The notes under the pieces are model-generated. The model worked only from the letters and a program-made list of their open reading frames with translations, did no database searches and had not been told where the DNA came from. From positions 62,001-126,000 of the IMG/VR virus record IMGVR_UViG_3300011113_000640: DNA of 64,000 nucleotides. One strand, given 5' to 3'. A program made the translations under genes and the position numbers. Positions 12,468 through 19,781 of the stretch are shown one piece after another (positions within the stretch are counted from its first letter, which is position 1; each line of letters starts with the position of its first letter). This DNA comes from a virus.

Positions 12468-13205
12468 ATGGCGTCTTACAACAACTACAGCGACAATTGG
12501 TATGTGACCGTAAATGGTGGAACTGGCACAGTTTATCTTGATGCCTCACTACAAGTAAATGGCAACATCACCTATGTCAGTCAGCTAGAGGTCAATGACG
12601 CTTTTATCATAGCAGCCGCCAACAACAGCAGCTCTGCCAATGTAACAGCCGTGGGCTTTTTGGCAGGCAAACCCACCACACCCATCAGCTATGCTGGAAT
12701 CCAATACAACGCCACAGCCGATGCCTGGCAAATATCCACCAATGTTTTTGCCAATGGCGTAGCCAACACAGCCTATGCCAATATCAGTACTTCAACATAC
12801 GGAAACACAAATGTTGTGGCCTTGTTATCGGCATTTGGTAGCAACACCATTTCAACTACCGGAACCATTAATTCCGGCAACATTGTAGCTCCCAATGTCA
12901 TTGTGGGCAACGTTACCACCAATCTAATAAGATCAGACGATTCTTCTTATCTAACTGTGCAAGATGGGTTGAATGTGGTTGGCGACGTTGAAGTATCGGG
13001 TAACATAACCGGTGGTAACACAATATCAGATTCAAGCATAACTCCTTCCAAAGCACTAGCCGACCTTACTGCTACAGATGGTGCACGGGCATTTGTAAAC
13101 GATGCTAACTTGGTGGCTGCAGGTAACTTTGGAAATCAGATCGGCAGTGGTGGATCAAATGTGGTGCCAGTCTGGTCGGATGGCTCCAACTGGTATATAG
13201 GCTAA
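12468..13205 (+). CDS. Short tail-fibre-like protein with the shared C-terminal cap
   Basis: This 245-residue protein of the Gly/Asn repeat type ('VNGNITYVSQLEVND', 'SGNITGGNTI') has a C-terminal ~48 residues ending 'VPVWSDGSNWYIG' that nearly match the end of the fibre at 2324-5587. It sits alone, about 6 kb from the main fibre block, behind its own late-type promoter and AAGGA ribosome site. It may be an alternative tip or an accessory adhesin. The end converges on the desaturase gene (4-nt overlap). Confidence 0.75.
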   Translation: MASYNNYSDNWYVTVNGGTGTVYLDASLQVNGNITYVSQLEVNDAFIIAAANNSSSANVTAVGFLAGKPTTPISYAGIQYNATADAWQISTNVFANGVANTAYANISTSTYGNTNVVALLSAFGSNTISTTGTINSGNIVAPNVIVGNVTTNLIRSDDSSYLTVQDGLNVVGDVEVSGNITGGNTISDSSITPSKALADLTATDGARAFVNDANLVAAGNFGNQIGSGGSNVVPVWSDGSNWYIG

Positions 13206-13918
13206 ACTGACTGTTCGCGTAGTGTGGCCAGTTTATAACGTTCCAGCAGTTTGATATAAGTCCAACCCAGGTCCCATTCCCATTTCTTCACGCTGAGTTT
13301 GGGACTAGCTGGATCTGCGTGATGATTGTTGTGCAATTCCTCGCCACCAATGAAAAATGCCCAAGGCACTATGTTGGTCGAATAGTCCTTGGTGGCTGTG
13401 TTTCTGTAGCCCCACCAGTGCCCCAGGCCGTTGATGACTCCGGCCGCAAACAAAGGTATCCAGATCATTTGCCAGCCCCAGGCCAACCATCCCCAGGCCC
13501 AGCCAAATATCATGCAATCAATAAAGAACATGATAACAATACCCAACCAGTTGAATCTTGTGTAGATGTTGCGTTCCATCCAGTCGTCAGGTGTGCCTAC
13601 TCCGTACTGTTCAACCATTTTTTTATCTTGTGCAGCCCAGGCATAGTAGAAAGCACCTCCCAGCAAGATCTGCCAGATTCCTTCATTTTGCGGGCTATGC
13701 GGATCACCTTCTTTGTCGGTAAATCTGTGATGTTTTCTATGAGTGGCCACCCACTGCCGAGTGACCATGCCTGTGGTCAGCCACAGCCAAAATCTCATGA
13801 AGTGTGCGACCCTGGGATCGAATGTGACTCCTCTATGTGCTTGACTGCGATGCAAATAAAGTGTGACACAGGCTATGGTGATGTGTGTCATCACCAGGAT
13901 GTAGATGAGTAGGCCCAT
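13202..13918 (-). CDS. Membrane fatty-acid desaturase (delta-9 type)
   Basis: The three histidine boxes of the membrane desaturase family are present: HRSQAHR (23-29), HRKHH (60-64) and HNNHH (near 197, followed by ADPASPK). Several hydrophobic segments surround them. The enzyme would insert a cis double bond into acyl chains using a di-iron centre and electrons from the host. A phage copy could adjust membrane fluidity during infection. It follows the GNAT gene by 7 nt and is probably co-transcribed with it. Confidence 0.88.
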   Translation of the reverse strand: MGLLIYILVMTHITIACVTLYLHRSQAHRGVTFDPRVAHFMRFWLWLTTGMVTRQWVATHRKHHRFTDKEGDPHSPQNEGIWQILLGGAFYYAWAAQDKKMVEQYGVGTPDDWMERNIYTRFNWLGIVIMFFIDCMIFGWAWGWLAWGWQMIWIPLFAAGVINGLGHWWGYRNTATKDYSTNIVPWAFFIGGEELHNNHHADPASPKLSVKKWEWDLGWTYIKLLERYKLATLREQSV

Positions 13919-13925
13919 GTTTTAC

Positions 13926-14480
13926 TTAGCCAAAACTTTCCTGGAATGGCCGCCAGCTTTGTTGCAGAGCCATGTAAAACAAATTGCGTTGCCGTGTGAC
14001 CAGTTCTTGATTCAAGGTGATCCAGGTAGCAGGTGCCAGGGCAATCTTGGTTTCGCTGTCGCCACCTAGATCTCGTGGTTCCAGACCGTGTTTGTCACAC
14101 AGGTGCTTAATGGCTGCATTATGACCCAGGCAGTGCATGAACAGTTCGTTATAGCCACGATTTCTAGCCCAGACTATGCCTTGTGTGAGCAAGTCATCAC
14201 CGATGCCTAGGCCTCTATGATCGCGGTGCACTATGAGCCCAAATTCCACCTGCGCTTTGCTGATTTCGGCTATGTGCAAGGTGCCCAGCCAGCCCTCACA
14301 GTTGGCGGCTATCAGGAAAGCATGACCATTGGGCTCGGCTTCTATTCGTAGCATGAGGCTTTCTATGATGCCCACACCGGTGGTTCCAAAATACATGTGC
14401 TGGGTGTCGGCATCTTGCTCCTGCAACCATTCACCGTAGCGATGATATTTGTCAGGATCTAGAAATTGGGTGGTGTACAT
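13926..14480 (-). CDS. GNAT-family N-acetyltransferase
   Basis: The acetyl-CoA binding signature 'HRDHRGLGIGDDLLTQGIVWA' type (R/Q-x-x-G-x-G/A) is followed by 'GHNAAIKHLCDKHGL', the usual C-terminal helix of the GNAT fold. The substrate is unknown; proteins, aminoglycosides or nucleotides are all possible. Its ATG overlaps the stop of a 39-residue gene (TAATG), and the desaturase follows. A late-type promoter lies upstream of the three-gene set. Confidence 0.75.
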   Translation of the reverse strand: MYTTQFLDPDKYHRYGEWLQEQDADTQHMYFGTTGVGIIESLMLRIEAEPNGHAFLIAANCEGWLGTLHIAEISKAQVEFGLIVHRDHRGLGIGDDLLTQGIVWARNRGYNELFMHCLGHNAAIKHLCDKHGLEPRDLGGDSETKIALAPATWITLNQELVTRQRNLFYMALQQSWRPFQESFG

Positions 14481-15221: not shown

Positions 15222-15391
15222 ACAGGACCACGCAAGAAATACATGGCACAATAGATCACAAATCCCGAGAACAGAATCAAGGCCAATGTTGCAGCCAACT
15301 CCATGCTATCAACATCACCGTCGATCTTGATCATGTGTGTGACAACAAACACACCAAATATCACTACAAGCAAAAAGACGCCGAAGGCCAT
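15218..15391 (-). CDS. 57-residue membrane protein
   Basis: Two hydrophobic helices ('FGVFLLVVIFGVFVV' and 'ATLALILFSGFVIYCAMYFL') are separated by a short acidic loop. The ATG overlaps the uvsE stop (TAATG) and the stop overlaps the next gene (ATGA). Function unknown. Confidence 0.6.
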   Translation of the reverse strand: MAFGVFLLVVIFGVFVVTHMIKIDGDVDSMELAATLALILFSGFVIYCAMYFLRGPV

Positions 15392-16422
15392 TATACCAAC
15401 CCCAATTCTACTGCACGATTGTAAACCTGCGCACTGGCCAGGTTCTTACCTTTGCTTTCGCACTGTATGTCAAACTGGTTCCAGAAACCCAACACCCAAT
15501 CTGTGACAGCCGGGTTCCAGTAAAAGTCAGAATGTGCTCGTAGTTTTTGTTTTTTGTAGCCGGCTTCTAACAGACTTGCATGATCTGGACGATGCTGAAC
15601 TGCATGGTCCACAAGTACATCTTCACGGCTAACGCTGTAGTGCATAGCAGGACGAACACCGCGCCAGCTGTCCACGACACGTTTGACACGGTCGTCCGTG
15701 GGTGAAATATATTCTCCCGTTTTGATCCAGTGATGGTGAACATCAAGCACAGTAGGAACAATATCACCAAGTTCAAGACAACGATCCAGGCCATGTGTTA
15801 TTTCTTCGTTTTCAAATGTAATACAACTGCGGGCTGTGGGTGATAATCGCGACCAGGCACGGCGTGCACCGGCGGCACCGGCTTTACCTGATATGTGTAC
15901 GTTGATTTTAAAATCCTGGAAGGATTTGCCATAACCCATCCATCTGGCCATATCCGCATGATATTCAAACTCCTCTATGCTTCTATTTACGATTTCTTCG
16001 CTTTCCGACCCCAGCACACAGAACTGTCCAGGATGAAACGACAAACGAACATCCAGTCTGCGTGCGGTTTCACCAATGGGCGCAAAAATCCGTTCACAGT
16101 GATCTTGTATTTCCCTACGTTGCCACCAGGCCTTCCAGTCTTTCTCTGTGTAGCCTTGTAGCATTTCACTGCCCAGACGCACCATTCTACGATTTGGGAG
16201 CAATGAGGCCACACGCTCGATCAGTTTCACAGCGGCCGAGGCGTTGTGGTTCATGATGTCCCACTGGCGTTGTTCGGCTTCGGCTGGATGCTCACGCAAC
16301 CAACGCATGGTGGTTGATCGGCCGTTGAGGTCGCGGTCTTTGGCATTGACTTTCATGCCGCCGCATTCGGACGGATCATTGAGCCATTTGCAACAGAAAC
16401 CAATGCGTTTGAGTGTAGTCAT
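15391..16422 (-). CDS. uvsE: UV damage endonuclease (UvdE/UvsE family)
   Basis: This TIM-barrel metal-dependent endonuclease nicks 5' of UV photoproducts to start alternative excision repair. Typical motifs include 'RLSFHPGQFCVLGS', 'FENEEIT' and 'VLDVHHHW', and the length (343 residues) fits the family. The ATG at 16422 is chosen because family members start close to 'LKRIGFCCKW'; an upstream in-frame GTG lies inside the promoter. The ATG coincides with the predicted transcription start, so the mRNA should be leaderless. It is the first gene of a three-gene operon. Confidence 0.9.
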   Translation of the reverse strand: MTTLKRIGFCCKWLNDPSECGGMKVNAKDRDLNGRSTTMRWLREHPAEAEQRQWDIMNHNASAAVKLIERVASLLPNRRMVRLGSEMLQGYTEKDWKAWWQRREIQDHCERIFAPIGETARRLDVRLSFHPGQFCVLGSESEEIVNRSIEEFEYHADMARWMGYGKSFQDFKINVHISGKAGAAGARRAWSRLSPTARSCITFENEEITHGLDRCLELGDIVPTVLDVHHHWIKTGEYISPTDDRVKRVVDSWRGVRPAMHYSVSREDVLVDHAVQHRPDHASLLEAGYKKQKLRAHSDFYWNPAVTDWVLGFWNQFDIQCESKGKNLASAQVYNRAVELGLV

Positions 16423-16428
16423 GCATAC

Positions 16429-16457
16429 ATTATAGCACAAACTGTGCCAAATGTCAA
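16429..16457 (-). promoter_or_regulatory. Consensus sigma70 promoter of uvsE with extended -10
   Basis: On the minus strand TTGACA (16457-16452), 17 bp, TATAAT (16434-16429) with TGC before the -10. Six bases separate the -10 from the ATG, so +1 should fall on the A of ATG. Confidence 0.8.
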
Positions 16458-16459
16458 GG

Positions 16460-17026
16460 TCAAATAGTGCCTAAAATAGAATCCAGGGTGTCAGTGACCA
16501 CATTTGGTAAGTTTGCTATGTTTTGGTCCAAAGCCGTGGCGTGATCCACTATAACCCATTGTGTTTGGTCATAGGTTAGAAAAGCCTGACGCACCATGTT
16601 GCGATGATGTCGTTCTCGATTGGCGGTCAATAGATCTGAGTCGGGTTTCAACTCCGCAAGATTCCAACCCAGCATCAACACTATGTCACTGGTGGTTGCA
16701 GCCAAGTGCATGGCCACCAATTCTTCTTGATGTATGACATCGTGAACAAACTCTCCGGCGTAAATTTTGACTCCTGTGGGTCTGTCCAGGTTGGCATACG
16801 CTGTGTCAGGCACATAAAAATTACAACTGCGTTGAAAATCTCGCTTGATAAATTCAGAGGCCTTGACCTGATCATGACAAATCACGTTGTCGGTTTGGCA
16901 GGCTCGCCAGGTACGCCATGATCCCCAAAATGCACCAATGGTCTTCAACACTGCAATGTCTTGGGTAGGATCCAGTTGCACACTGTCACTGAGCACCCAA
17001 CTGATCTTTTCTCTGGCTCTATGCAT
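16460..17026 (-). CDS. Unassigned 188-residue phage protein after amidinotransferase
   Basis: No known domain was recognised. The protein is mixed alpha/beta with 'TSDIVLMLGWNLAELKPD' and 'TQWVIVDHATALDQNIANLPNVV', a pattern suggesting a P-loop-free Rossmann-like fold. It overlaps the amidinotransferase by 8 nt, so the two are probably translated together. Confidence 0.6.
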   Translation of the reverse strand: MHRAREKISWVLSDSVQLDPTQDIAVLKTIGAFWGSWRTWRACQTDNVICHDQVKASEFIKRDFQRSCNFYVPDTAYANLDRPTGVKIYAGEFVHDVIHQEELVAMHLAATTSDIVLMLGWNLAELKPDSDLLTANRERHHRNMVRQAFLTYDQTQWVIVDHATALDQNIANLPNVVTDTLDSILGTI

Positions 17027-17942
17027 GAGATCGTTGTGTGTCCAAGGTCACACAGTGGAATCCGCCGCCCAGGGTTCGGCTGTGTCTAAGACGCAAAGGA
17101 ATGGTATCAAAACCATGTGATTGTAACACTGGTATTAACGCAGTTTGATCAGCATCAACTATGACAGTTTCTGGATCCAGGACCAGCATGTTCATGGCTA
17201 TCCATTTACTAGCATAAGGATACTGATAAAAATTTTGTGGTACTATCATGTCATCAGTTACCCAGATCTTTTCCCAGTAGTCAAAAGCTCGAGGACAGTT
17301 GTCGGGAGTGACGCGACCAGCGTTTAACATGACCAGACCTTCACGCAAGGGCACTATGGTTGAATCTATATGCACTCCAGCATAAAAATTACACAATTCT
17401 ATGTTTACCGCAGGAAATCGATCACACAACCATTCATAGGCCGCACGATTTCCTGAAGCTGATTCCAGGAACAACCAGGTATCGCCTAACCTGCACACAT
17501 TAGCAGCGTCCATGACCATGCCTGAATCTCTGGGCATGGTCAAGACGTTTCTTGCTTGGGCTACAAGCCTTGTATAGTTTTTTATCTCTTGATTGCGACA
17601 TGGATACATCATGTTGACATCAACCATGGTGTCTTCGTACACCAAGAGTCGATCTCTAGGACAATAGTTGTACATGCCCTGGGTGGCTACAAAATCCATG
17701 TCTTGGGGGCGGTACACCGTGGCACCGTACCGCAACAAGGTCTCACACAATAGATCGAGATCTTCATTGGCTTCGTCGACAATCCATTGCGGCACTGGGC
17801 CCGCGGGCACCGGTGTTTCTGTCCAGGTAGTTTTTTCAGATTCCAGGGCAAACACAGGATCCGATGTAGGCCAATTGGCATGAGTGGCTGTGCCTACCAC
17901 TATGGCCTTGAGAGGATCCCACTCGTTGATTGAATTAATCAT
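17019..17942 (-). CDS. Glycine/arginine amidinotransferase-like enzyme
   Basis: The protein has the amidinotransferase beta/alpha propeller fold with a readable triad: Asp145 in 'VMDAANV', His191 in 'GVHIDST' and Cys297 in 'GGGFHCVTLD'. Members move the amidino group of arginine to an amine, or act as arginine deiminases. Its 307 residues are near the lower end of the family. It lies between a 2OG-oxygenase-like protein and an unknown protein, each overlapping by 8 nt. The acceptor is unknown; a modified amino acid or base, or a small guanidino compound, is possible. Confidence 0.85.
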   Translation of the reverse strand: MINSINEWDPLKAIVVGTATHANWPTSDPVFALESEKTTWTETPVPAGPVPQWIVDEANEDLDLLCETLLRYGATVYRPQDMDFVATQGMYNYCPRDRLLVYEDTMVDVNMMYPCRNQEIKNYTRLVAQARNVLTMPRDSGMVMDAANVCRLGDTWLFLESASGNRAAYEWLCDRFPAVNIELCNFYAGVHIDSTIVPLREGLVMLNAGRVTPDNCPRAFDYWEKIWVTDDMIVPQNFYQYPYASKWIAMNMLVLDPETVIVDADQTALIPVLQSHGFDTIPLRLRHSRTLGGGFHCVTLDTQRSHA

Positions 17943-18456
17943 CTACATGTCCGGTGATTTGCAAGGTGTATCGAGGAGTCAGTCCCAGATTGGCAGCCAT
18001 GTGTGGAGTATCATAGGTCCATTCAATCACAGCACCTGCACGCCAATTTACAAAGGCCTGGTCCATGTACTCAGCGTAGTGTCCAGGTTGCCAGTCTTCT
18101 AAAAAGATAATTGCGCGACGTATGGTGTGTTCCCGGCCTTGTAGTTTGAAAACATCTATGTATTTCAAGTAAAGATCGCCGTGTGTGGGCAACACTGTGC
18201 CTGTGTCCATTCTGTAATAACTGGTGCCCACATCACGCCATCCCTGGCCTTGGAATATTTCCACAATCCTTTGATTCCAACTAGGTTGTTGACTTCTCAT
18301 GTCGCACATGTTACCAGTGAACTTGTTGGGATATCCTTGTGAGGTCCAAACTTCTAATAGTTGTGTGTCATTGAAAGATTCATTGATGTAGTCAAGTGTT
18401 TTGTAGTCTTCATTCCAAAAAGGATAAAGTTGATATTTGTGAATGCTGTGAGTCAT
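17935..18456 (-). CDS. 2-oxoglutarate/Fe(II) oxygenase-like protein
   Basis: The facial triad and cosubstrate arginine can be placed at His92-x-Asp94 ('THGDLY'), His152 ('DTPHMAANLG') and Arg162 ('TPRYTLQITG'). This layout fits prolyl-hydroxylase-like enzymes. It would hydroxylate a protein, amino acid or small molecule. It starts the operon with the amidinotransferase; AGGAC precedes the ATG. The substrate is not known. Confidence 0.75.
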   Translation of the reverse strand: MTHSIHKYQLYPFWNEDYKTLDYINESFNDTQLLEVWTSQGYPNKFTGNMCDMRSQQPSWNQRIVEIFQGQGWRDVGTSYYRMDTGTVLPTHGDLYLKYIDVFKLQGREHTIRRAIIFLEDWQPGHYAEYMDQAFVNWRAGAVIEWTYDTPHMAANLGLTPRYTLQITGHVDD

Positions 18457-18497: not shown

Positions 18498-19781
18498 ATG
18501 AACATTCCTATAGACCGCTTGTATCATTACATTGAGAGCTGTGCCAAAAAAATCTACGGTGATCATGTTTTAATTTATCGTTTTTGGCCGCATGGTTCAA
18601 AAAACATTGAGAATCTGACTTCATTACACCCTCTAAAGTCTTGGCTGGAACTGCAGACCTTGCCTGTAATATATTGCAATGATCAAGAACCTCTACAATA
18701 TGACTACTACAAAAACAATTTAAAACAATTCGACGGGAAATTTGCAGATCTGTTGGTAAAATTAAATTTGGATTACAAAGTAACAAATCTAAATTCTTAT
18801 CAAAATATATTTGCCAAAAACATACTGTTGCACAGTGAAAAAAATTCAACTGATTTAGAAAAATATCAAAAACATGACCAATTAATTTTGGTCTATTACT
18901 GGAGTCATGCTGTCATAGCCCGAGACTGGTATAGATTTGCAGAGCATGTAGATTTTCAAAAAAGTCCTAAAAGATTTTTTTTGATTTACAATCGCTCTTG
19001 GACCGGTACTAGAGAATACCGGCTTAAATTTTCTGATTTGTTGATTGATGCCGAGCTAGTCAAGCATTGTCAAAGCACATTTAATCCTCAAGATTCTGAA
19101 ACAGATGTACGTTATACAAACTATGCGTTTCAAACAAAAAAATGGCAACCAACACACAAATTAGAAAAATATTTTGCTCCAAACAGTGCACCTGCTAGTA
19201 GCAGTGCGGATTTTGAGATTCTTGATTACTGTGACACAGAAGTTGAAGTTGTGCTTGAAACTTTGTTTGACGACAATCGTTGGCATTTGACTGAAAAAAT
19301 TCTTAGACCCATTGCATGCGGTCAACCGTTTATCTTGGCCAGCACGCCGGGCAGTCTAGAATATTTAAAACAATATGGTTTTCAAACCTACCAAGAGGTC
19401 TGGAACGAAGACTATGACACCGTTACTGACCCAGAATCAAGATTACATAAAATCATTGACTTGATGAAATATCTGGTTGGTCTCAACGACAGACAAAAAA
19501 AAGATATCATGCATCGAGCGCAGAAGATAGCCGATCACAATCGAAAGTTATTTTTCAGTAAAGAATTTTTTGATAGAATAACAAATGAGTTAGAAACAAA
19601 TTTGGTGGCGGCTTTTGCCTGCCTAAAAGTGTTGCCGGCAAATCAAAATTTCATAGATAGATACACTAAGATACTAGCAAATCCTATCACAAAAAATTTT
19701 TTAAGTCTCGATCAAGATATTCTGTCCCCTAATTTGCACATGGTTGACCAAGCATTAAAGTTAGCTCAAAGCAGACCATAA
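18498..19781 (+). CDS. Glycosyltransferase-like protein (phage family, paralogue 1)
   Basis: The C-terminal half carries 'LTEKILRPIACGQPFILASTPGSLEYLKQYGFQTY', a pattern like the acceptor/donor region of exostosin or fucosyltransferase-type GT-B enzymes ('TEK' plus G-x-PF). The same block occurs in the genes at 49365 and 63582, so the phage has at least three paralogues. The N-terminal half is AT-rich and divergent. A role in modifying host surface sugars or DNA is possible. Only weak upstream signals other than TAAATA are present. Confidence 0.7.
   Translation: MNIPIDRLYHYIESCAKKIYGDHVLIYRFWPHGSKNIENLTSLHPLKSWLELQTLPVIYCNDQEPLQYDYYKNNLKQFDGKFADLLVKLNLDYKVTNLNSYQNIFAKNILLHSEKNSTDLEKYQKHDQLILVYYWSHAVIARDWYRFAEHVDFQKSPKRFFLIYNRSWTGTREYRLKFSDLLIDAELVKHCQSTFNPQDSETDVRYTNYAFQTKKWQPTHKLEKYFAPNSAPASSSADFEILDYCDTEVEVVLETLFDDNRWHLTEKILRPIACGQPFILASTPGSLEYLKQYGFQTYQEVWNEDYDTVTDPESRLHKIIDLMKYLVGLNDRQKKDIMHRAQKIADHNRKLFFSKEFFDRITNELETNLVAAFACLKVLPANQNFIDRYTKILANPITKNFLSLDQDILSPNLHMVDQALKLAQSRP

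What the first reader, a model, noticed from the sequence alone, without database searches (positions are those of the whole stretch)
16460..18456. Operon of 2OG-oxygenase-like, amidinotransferase and unknown protein
Three genes overlapping by 8 nt each combine a His-x-Asp...His...Arg oxygenase pattern, an amidinotransferase with a Cys/His/Asp triad, and an unassigned protein. Such a set could install a guanidino group on a hydroxylated amino acid or nucleotide. A small-molecule or base-modification pathway carried by a phage would be new.
Basis: inference. Interest (0 to 1): 0.6.

Follow-up and report, generated by a model that had tools for sequence, protein, structure and literature searches.

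The report
Phage oxygenase–amidinotransferase sugar-modification gene pair
A very large, uncultivated bacterial virus carries side by side a gene for an oxygen-using enzyme and a gene for an enzyme that adds a guanidine group, a pair that recurs in many other aquatic phages next to sugar genes, so these phages probably build an unusual guanidine-bearing sugar that nobody has yet isolated.

Summary
In detail: three minus-strand genes (18456-17935, 17942-17019, 17026-16460) overlap by exactly 8 nt. Gene 1 (OX) has the conserved HxD...H...R set and a confidently predicted Fe(II)/2OG-oxygenase fold. Gene 2 (AMT) is a relative of the streptomycin-pathway amidinotransferase StrB1 (PDB 1bwd, E 3e-60) with every catalytic position kept. 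Gene 3 (U3) has no recognisable family or fold match.

OX-AMT is a real unit: AMT is the next gene in 71 of 76 distinct viral loci, and the pair recurs in a second, distant phage AMT clade that includes cultured cyanophage S-SCSM2R. The pair is linked to sugar genes. A UDP-sugar dehydrogenase (UGD) often lies directly upstream of OX, and independently lies next to AMT in the second clade; all 7 large records tested carry one UGD, the window's own phage at another place. The second clade sits among glycosyltransferases and sugar-aminotransferase-like genes.

I therefore favour a phage-borne pathway for a guanidino- (probably hydroxylated) sugar or glycan substituent over a modified DNA base. 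U3 is an optional neighbour, not core. Acceptor, product and glycan target are inferred.

The parts
17935..18456 (-). OX: putative Fe(II)/2-oxoglutarate oxygenase, 173 aa; metal triad H92-x-D94...H152, putative 2OG-binding R162
   Evidence: conserved residues; AF2 model, pLDDT 94; top PDB fold matches are mostly 2OG oxygenases, E from 3e-5; PF05118 hit in 9 of 38 relatives, best E 8.8e-6
17019..17942 (-). AMT: StrB1-like amidinotransferase, 307 aa; nucleophile C297, H191, D145, D97
   Evidence: 1bwd, E 2.7e-60; human AGAT 1e-26; HsvA 1e-27; catalytic columns conserved; phrog_25854, unknown function
16460..17026 (-). U3: conserved protein of unknown function, 188 aa, predicted compact alpha/beta fold; optional neighbour, probably not a pathway step
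   Evidence: pLDDT 92; no PDB match at E<=0.001, TM below 0.4; present in only part of the loci
17935..17942 (-). 8-nt overlap of OX end and AMT start
   Evidence: relatives mostly overlap too, commonly by 4, 10 or 14 nt
17019..17026 (-). 8-nt overlap of AMT end and U3 start, at a junction where relatives carry a structural-like gene
18498..19781 (+). GTL: divergently transcribed 427-aa protein, conserved neighbour of OX-AMT; belongs to a family with at least 8 copies in this phage; a relative overlaps the third AMT gene of the phage. Glycosyltransferase-like by eye only
   Evidence: (neighbour in most loci); no Pfam, NCBIfam or PDB match
15391..16440 (-). UvdE-type UV endonuclease; conserved downstream neighbour, not thought part of the pathway
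   Evidence: (PF03851, E 8.5e-28)

Best explanation
OX and AMT are two steps of a phage-encoded sugar-modification pathway. Shown by sequence: OX is a 2OG-oxygenase-fold protein with a complete metal triad, AMT is a StrB1-type amidinotransferase with all catalytic residues, and the two genes are a recurrent unit in two distant phage AMT clades. Inferred: a UDP-sugar dehydrogenase (UGD) and DegT-type aminotransferases, encoded beside the pair or elsewhere in the same phage, supply an amino (uronic) sugar or a similar amine. AMT moves the amidino group of arginine onto that amine through a Cys297 amidino-enzyme intermediate, giving a guanidino sugar. OX uses O2, Fe(II) and 2-oxoglutarate to hydroxylate the sugar or the group attached to it. 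Phage transferases then place the unit in a glycan, on the virion or on the host surface. Rough confidence: OX is a 2OG oxygenase 0.93; AMT is an amidinotransferase 0.95; both act in one pathway 0.85; the pathway is sugar or glycan chemistry 0.55; U3 belongs to it 0.2.
For: AMT matches StrB1, which acts on an aminocyclitol phosphate, far better than glycine or polyamine-type enzymes (E 3e-60 against about 1e-27). AMT is next to OX in 71 of 76 distinct loci. Cultured cyanophage S-SCSM2R has OX then AMT (28% and 33% identity) inside a glycosyltransferase, DegT-like and radical SAM cluster. In 62 distinct loci of that second clade or its neighbourhood set, a mini-DegT gene is found in 54, a GT like S-SCSM2R gene 307 in 50, the OX homologue in 42 (directly upstream in 28) and UGD in 10. 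UGD lies directly upstream of OX in about half of clade-1 loci and directly downstream of AMT in several clade-2 loci, so the link arose in two arrangements. UGD has the invariant catalytic Cys motif GDAGxCHPRD and matches UDP-glucose dehydrogenases. All 7 large records have exactly one UGD and at least one full-length DegT enzyme; in the window's phage they are at 284-285, 291-292 and 258 kb of the 320.5-kb record, with epimerase/dehydratase genes nearby. A second AMT of the phage overlaps a GTL-family gene at 254.9 kb and lies close to a DegT gene.
Against: No substrate or product is known, and gene neighbourhood is indirect: these phages are rich in sugar genes in general, and I had no matched control for that. 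In the window's phage, UGD and DegT are 170-220 kb away from OX-AMT. GTL has no family or fold assignment. Protein distances of OX and AMT correlate only moderately (r 0.61), less than GTL with the structural-like FIB gene (0.88) or with UGD (0.84), so OX and AMT are not shown to be inherited as one tighter unit. The UGD product would carry a carboxylate but no amine, so the aminotransferase step is assumed.
Confidence: 0.5

Rival explanations
1. Free small molecule: AMT and OX turn a host amino acid or amine into a hydroxylated guanidino compound (a homoarginine-, guanidinoacetate- or guanidino-polyamine-like metabolite) that acts as a metabolite, stress protectant or inhibitor in the infected cell.
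For: AMT relatives act on free amines (human AGAT 1e-26, HsvA 1e-27). OX has fold matches to free-amino-acid hydroxylases, proline 3-hydroxylase and proline cis-4-hydroxylase. Ocean viruses were reported enriched in guanidinoacetate N-methyltransferase (PMC11360552).
Against: AMT is much closer to StrB1 than to these enzymes. UGD and glycosyltransferase linkage is unexplained.
Confidence: 0.18
2. DNA base modification: the pair decorates a modified base of the phage DNA, for example a 7-deazaguanine derivative, with a guanidino group.
For: QueD (PF01242) is in 7 of 7 clade-1 records and in two further AMT-bearing phages; a QueE-like gene lies near UGD in the window's phage; GTP cyclohydrolase I lies between OX and AMT in L014. 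Phage 7-deazaguanine DNA is known (PMC6884629).
Against: No TGT (PF01702), no QueF (PF14489), and the QueC match is an NAD synthase in the window's phage (PF02540, E 6e-47). No thymidylate-synthase-family base hydroxymethylase (PF00303) in 7 records. QueD was not found in S-SCSM2R or in the other clade-2 records searched. Divergent phage DpdA could escape PF01702.
Confidence: 0.1
3. Protein modification: OX hydroxylates and AMT amidinates side chains of a virion protein, such as the structural-like FIB protein often encoded next to the pair.
For: The FIB gene directly follows AMT in many loci; 2OG oxygenases of the prolyl-hydroxylase kind act on proteins (P. putida P4H, TMq 0.59).
Against: FIB is absent from many OX-AMT loci and was not found in the window's phage. 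No amidinotransferase of this family known to me acts on protein lysines.
Confidence: 0.1
4. All three genes form one pathway, with U3 a third enzyme.
For: U3 overlaps AMT by 8 nt here and directly follows it in a subset of loci; U3 is well conserved, with invariant residues.
Against: U3 is missing from about half of the OX-AMT loci and usually sits behind FIB; U3 distances track FIB best (r 0.86); no fold match to any enzyme.
Confidence: 0.12

Closest known systems
StrB1, L-arginine:inosamine-phosphate amidinotransferase of streptomycin biosynthesis (PDB 1bwd)
   Same: Homologous over nearly the whole length (E 2.7e-60); all catalytic positions kept
   Different: No streptomycin-type cluster was seen around it; the acceptor is unknown; the phage sequences form two clades of their own
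AMT gene with radical SAM and nucleotide-diphospho-sugar-transferase genes in Campylobacter phages CP220 and CPt10 (PMC2853527)
   Same: A phage amidinotransferase in a cluster with radical SAM and putative sugar-transferase genes
   Different: About 25% identity; no OX partner recognised there; authors gave no product
S-SCSM2R cyanophage glycan cluster (PQ898602: '2OG-Fe(II) oxygenase', 'inosamine amidinotransferase', glycosyltransferases)
   Same: Same OX-AMT order, homologous proteins
   Different: Lies inside a cluster of five annotated glycosyltransferases; window locus has one divergent unassigned neighbour; no FIB, U3 or UvdE there
PF05118 family (aspartyl/asparaginyl beta-hydroxylases, proline cis-4-hydroxylase and similar enzymes)
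   Same: Fold type, HxD...H...R order, weak profile matches in relatives
   Different: The window protein itself has no Pfam match; substrate unknown

Membership tests
Fe(II)/2-oxoglutarate oxygenase superfamily (OX) | HxD...H metal triad | tested here: met
   H92, D94 and H152 invariant in 38 sequences
Fe(II)/2-oxoglutarate oxygenase superfamily (OX) | basic residue that binds 2OG near the second His | tested here: met
   R162, nearly invariant, ten residues after H152; replaced by K in the second L014 copy
Fe(II)/2-oxoglutarate oxygenase superfamily (OX) | double-stranded beta-helix fold | tested here: met
   AF2 model pLDDT 94.2; PDB matches mostly 2OG oxygenases, E from 2.8e-5, prob 1.00; a prediction, TM only 0.4-0.6
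Fe(II)/2-oxoglutarate oxygenase superfamily (OX) | 2OG- and Fe-dependent oxidation | not testable with these tools
   needs assay
PF05118 Asp_Arg_Hydrox | profile match | tested here: inconclusive
   no match for the window protein; 9 of 38 relatives match, best E 8.8e-6
StrB/AGAT-type amidinotransferases | homology over the catalytic domain | tested here: met
   1bwd E 2.7e-60, residues 3-124 and 139-305
StrB/AGAT-type amidinotransferases | catalytic Cys, His and Asp residues | tested here: met
   C297, H191, D97, D145, conserved in phage relatives
StrB/AGAT-type amidinotransferases | curated family profile match (Pfam, NCBIfam) | tested here: not met
   no Pfam match at E<=1; NCBIfam only a sub-cut-off dimethylargininase match; classification therefore rests on PDB homology and residues
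Inosamine-phosphate amidinotransferase as a function | aminocyclitol acceptor and aminoglycoside gene cluster | tested here: not met
   no aminoglycoside-type cluster seen around the phage genes; acceptor not testable here
Phage sugar or glycan biosynthesis cassette | genes for nucleotide-sugar conversion and sugar transfer with the pair | tested here: met
   UGD next to the pair in two arrangements; UGD and DegT in 7 of 7 records; annotated glycosyltransferases in S-SCSM2R, one confirmed by PF00535/PF02709
Phage sugar or glycan biosynthesis cassette | a glycan with the predicted unit | not testable with these tools
   needs chemistry
Phage DNA base hypermodification | pyrimidine hydroxymethylase of the thymidylate synthase family | tested here: not met
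   PF00303 in 0 of 7 records; some records may be incomplete
Phage 7-deazaguanine DNA modification | QueC plus a TGT/DpdA enzyme | tested here: inconclusive
   QueD present, PF01702 and PF14489 absent, QueC match is an NAD synthase in G000; divergent DpdA not excluded

The most novel reading that the evidence does not exclude
Hundreds of aquatic phages share a previously unrecognised pathway that makes a hydroxylated guanidino sugar (perhaps a guanidino uronic acid), a building block not known from any virus, and mount it on their virions or on the infected cell's surface.
Probability: 0.3. Interest if true: 0.8.

Novelty: new variant of a known kind. Interest (0 to 1): 0.55.

Why it matters
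Phages with large genomes carry many sugar genes whose products are almost all unknown. A conserved pair with two assignable chemistries, recurring in many aquatic phages and in one cultured cyanophage, gives a concrete and testable guess at one product. A guanidino group is positively charged at all physiological pH, so putting it on a virion or cell-surface glycan would change binding, charge or recognition by other phages. It would also show StrB-type chemistry, known from antibiotic pathways, at work in viruses.

Tried and rejected
(1) Third gene as a pathway enzyme: no family, no PDB profile match, no fold match at E<=0.001, patchy presence. (2) DNA base modification through a thymidylate-synthase-type hydroxymethylase: PF00303 absent from 7 records. 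(3) 7-deazaguanine route: an apparent QueC hit proved to be NAD synthase in the window's phage; no TGT or QueF; QueD missing from the clade-2 records searched. (4) OX-AMT co-inheritance from protein distances: correlation not higher than for neighbouring genes, so no extra evidence. (5) Naming GTL: no match in Pfam, NCBIfam, PDB or named phages. (6) Host origin of AMT: a genome scan with two peptide patterns gave one 62% hit in a small MAG contig that carries the same phage-type gene order (OX, AMT, FIB-like), so probably a phage fragment; other bacterial relatives were at most about 45% over the best segment, with no OX-AMT pair in those inspected. (7) Literature on phage amidinotransferases: only Campylobacter phage clusters and KEGG-type listings found; subscription papers are not covered.

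Full report
What is there. The window is bases 62001-126000 of a 320,541-base uncultivated virus record. All three have relatives in other viral contigs, and substitutions between relatives are mostly silent (median pN 0.22-0.25, pS about 0.77 and near saturation), so they are genes under purifying selection.

OX (17935-18456). The single sequence has no Pfam, PHROG, NCBIfam or PDB-sequence match that counts. In an alignment of 38 relatives, H92, D94 and H152 are invariant and R162 nearly so. AlphaFold2 gave a model with mean pLDDT 94.2. Foldseek against the PDB returned mostly 2OG oxygenases, from E 2.8e-5 at probability 1.00; the TM-scores are modest (0.4-0.6) because most targets are larger. 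Nine of 38 relatives match the Pfam family PF05118, best E 8.8e-6. The assignment to the superfamily is sound; the substrate is open.

AMT (17019-17942). The best solved relative is StrB1, inosamine-phosphate amidinotransferase (1bwd, E 2.7e-60), well ahead of HsvA (1e-27), human AGAT (1e-26) and SxtG (1e-21). D97, R116, D145, H191, D193 and C297 align with StrB1 D108, R127, D179, H227, D229 and C332; the first, third and last of these and H191 are the catalytic positions as I know them. They are invariant or nearly so down to Campylobacter and Enterococcus phage relatives of about 25% identity. Curated Pfam and NCBIfam profiles do not recognise it above cut-off.

U3 (16460-17026). AlphaFold2 gave a confident alpha/beta model (pLDDT 92.2), but no PDB structure matched at E<=0.001 and TM-scores stayed below 0.4. 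It remains unassigned.

The pair is a unit. A scan of IMG/VR with the OX alignment gave at least 591 relatives, of which the best 80 were fetched. Together with earlier loci these give 76 distinct OX genes; the next gene is AMT in 71, and one more lies at a contig end. Overlaps of 4, 8, 10 or 14 nt are usual. The neighbourhood is a variable cassette: a divergent gene (GTL), an optional UGD, OX, AMT, an optional 245-aa gene, an optional structural-like gene (FIB), an optional U3, then UvdE. The window has the form GTL, OX, AMT, U3, UvdE. U3 is therefore one of the optional pieces, and its distances follow FIB (r 0.86) and GTL (0.78) more than OX (0.61) or AMT (0.66). Correlation of OX with AMT distances (0.61) is not higher than for other neighbours, so adjacency, not co-evolution, carries the argument.

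A second, independent setting. Cyanophage S-SCSM2R has an OX homologue directly before an AMT homologue, annotated 2OG-Fe(II) oxygenase and inosamine amidinotransferase, inside a run of glycosyltransferase, DegT-like and radical SAM genes. Its AMT has 330 relatives in IMG/VR. In a set of 62 distinct loci (most from this clade, a few from the L014 branch and one bacterial-labelled contig), a short DegT-like gene is present in 54, a GT like gene 307 in 50, an OX2-type gene in 42 (28 immediately upstream) and UGD in 10, several times immediately downstream of AMT. In a maximum-likelihood tree the two phage AMT sets are separate supported clades (98/81 and 100/100); whether they are sisters is not resolved.

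Why sugar. UGD carries the invariant GDAGxCHPRD motif that holds the catalytic Cys of UDP-glucose dehydrogenases and matches those structures (E 1e-23). It adjoins the pair in two different arrangements in two AMT clades. All seven large records tested have exactly one UGD, whether or not it is adjacent, and at least one full-length DegT aminotransferase. In the window's own phage, UGD is at 284.2-285.4 kb (57% identical to the L015 copy), near DegT at 291-292 kb, three epimerase/dehydratase-family genes, transketolase halves and a radical SAM-SPASM gene. The phage also has two further AMT paralogues; one (253.9-254.9 kb) overlaps a GTL-family gene and a radical SAM gene and lies close to a DegT gene and a carbamoyltransferase. 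Many of these genes are simply common in such phages, and I have no matched background count; this is the main weakness.

Why not a base. PF00303 was absent from all seven records. QueD was present in all seven and a QueE-like gene in the window's phage, but no TGT or QueF was found, the QueC match in the window's phage is an NAD synthase, and no QueD was found in S-SCSM2R or the other clade-2 records searched. Phage DpdA enzymes are divergent (PMC6884629), so the 7-deazaguanine rival is weakened, not excluded.

Mechanism proposed. Shown: enzyme classes and gene linkage. Inferred from StrB1-type chemistry: arginine gives its amidino group to C297, ornithine leaves, and an amine acceptor takes the group. 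Inferred from context: the acceptor is an amino sugar or sugar-linked amine, OX hydroxylates the same product, and the product enters a glycan. I put 0.5 on the whole.

Known and new. Phage amidinotransferases next to radical SAM genes were reported in Campylobacter phages in 2010 (PMC2853527), and S-SCSM2R carries the annotations above. I found no paper that describes the OX-AMT pair, its spread, or its UGD link, within an open-access library only. I call it a new variant of a known kind, phage sugar-modification cassettes.

Noticed in passing
G000 169.4-170.6 kb (L002) and 253.9-254.9 kb (L003): Two further amidinotransferase paralogues (389 and 339 aa) in the same phage; the second overlaps a GTL-family gene and a radical SAM gene.
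   Followed up: partly
G000 301815-302441 (L031:15815-16441), L016:9293-9880: A miniature DegT-like protein of about 200 aa that keeps the N-terminal part and the lysine region of the 360-aa family but lacks the rest; in 54 of 62 loci of the second set it accompanies AMT.
   Followed up: partly
window 18498-19781 and about seven other places in G000 (111, 164, 204, 244, 255, 274, 318 kb): A multi-copy family sharing a domain with a TEK...G-PF-L-GSL-YL-GF motif, no match in Pfam or PDB; resembles glycosyltransferase C-terminal domains by eye only.
   Followed up: partly
window 15391-16440: UvdE-type UV endonuclease conserved directly downstream of the cassette in many phages.
   Followed up: no
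G000 246-262 kb (L029): Cluster of several radical SAM-like proteins, a carbamoyltransferase (PF16861 E 3e-49), a DegT aminotransferase (PF01041 E 1e-58) and an amidinotransferase.
   Followed up: partly
G000 285.2-287.4 kb (L271, L031): NAD synthase (PF02540 E 6e-47) next to UGD, followed by a QueE-like radical SAM gene; QueD at 296.5 kb.
   Followed up: partly
L005-L008, L010 between AMT and U3/UvdE: A structural-like protein of 350-430 aa (FIB) that the window's phage lacks, leaving U3 fused onto the end of AMT with an 8-nt overlap.
   Followed up: partly
L120 (Bacteroidetes MAG) and L138 (Chloroflexi MAG): Contigs binned as bacterial that look like phage fragments: L120 has OX, AMT and FIB-like genes; L138 has AMT, a mini-DegT and a PrnA-like gene.
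   Followed up: no
window 13205-13918 and 13929-14480: Fatty acid desaturase (PF00487 E 7e-17) and a GNAT acetyltransferase close to the cassette in the phage.
   Followed up: no
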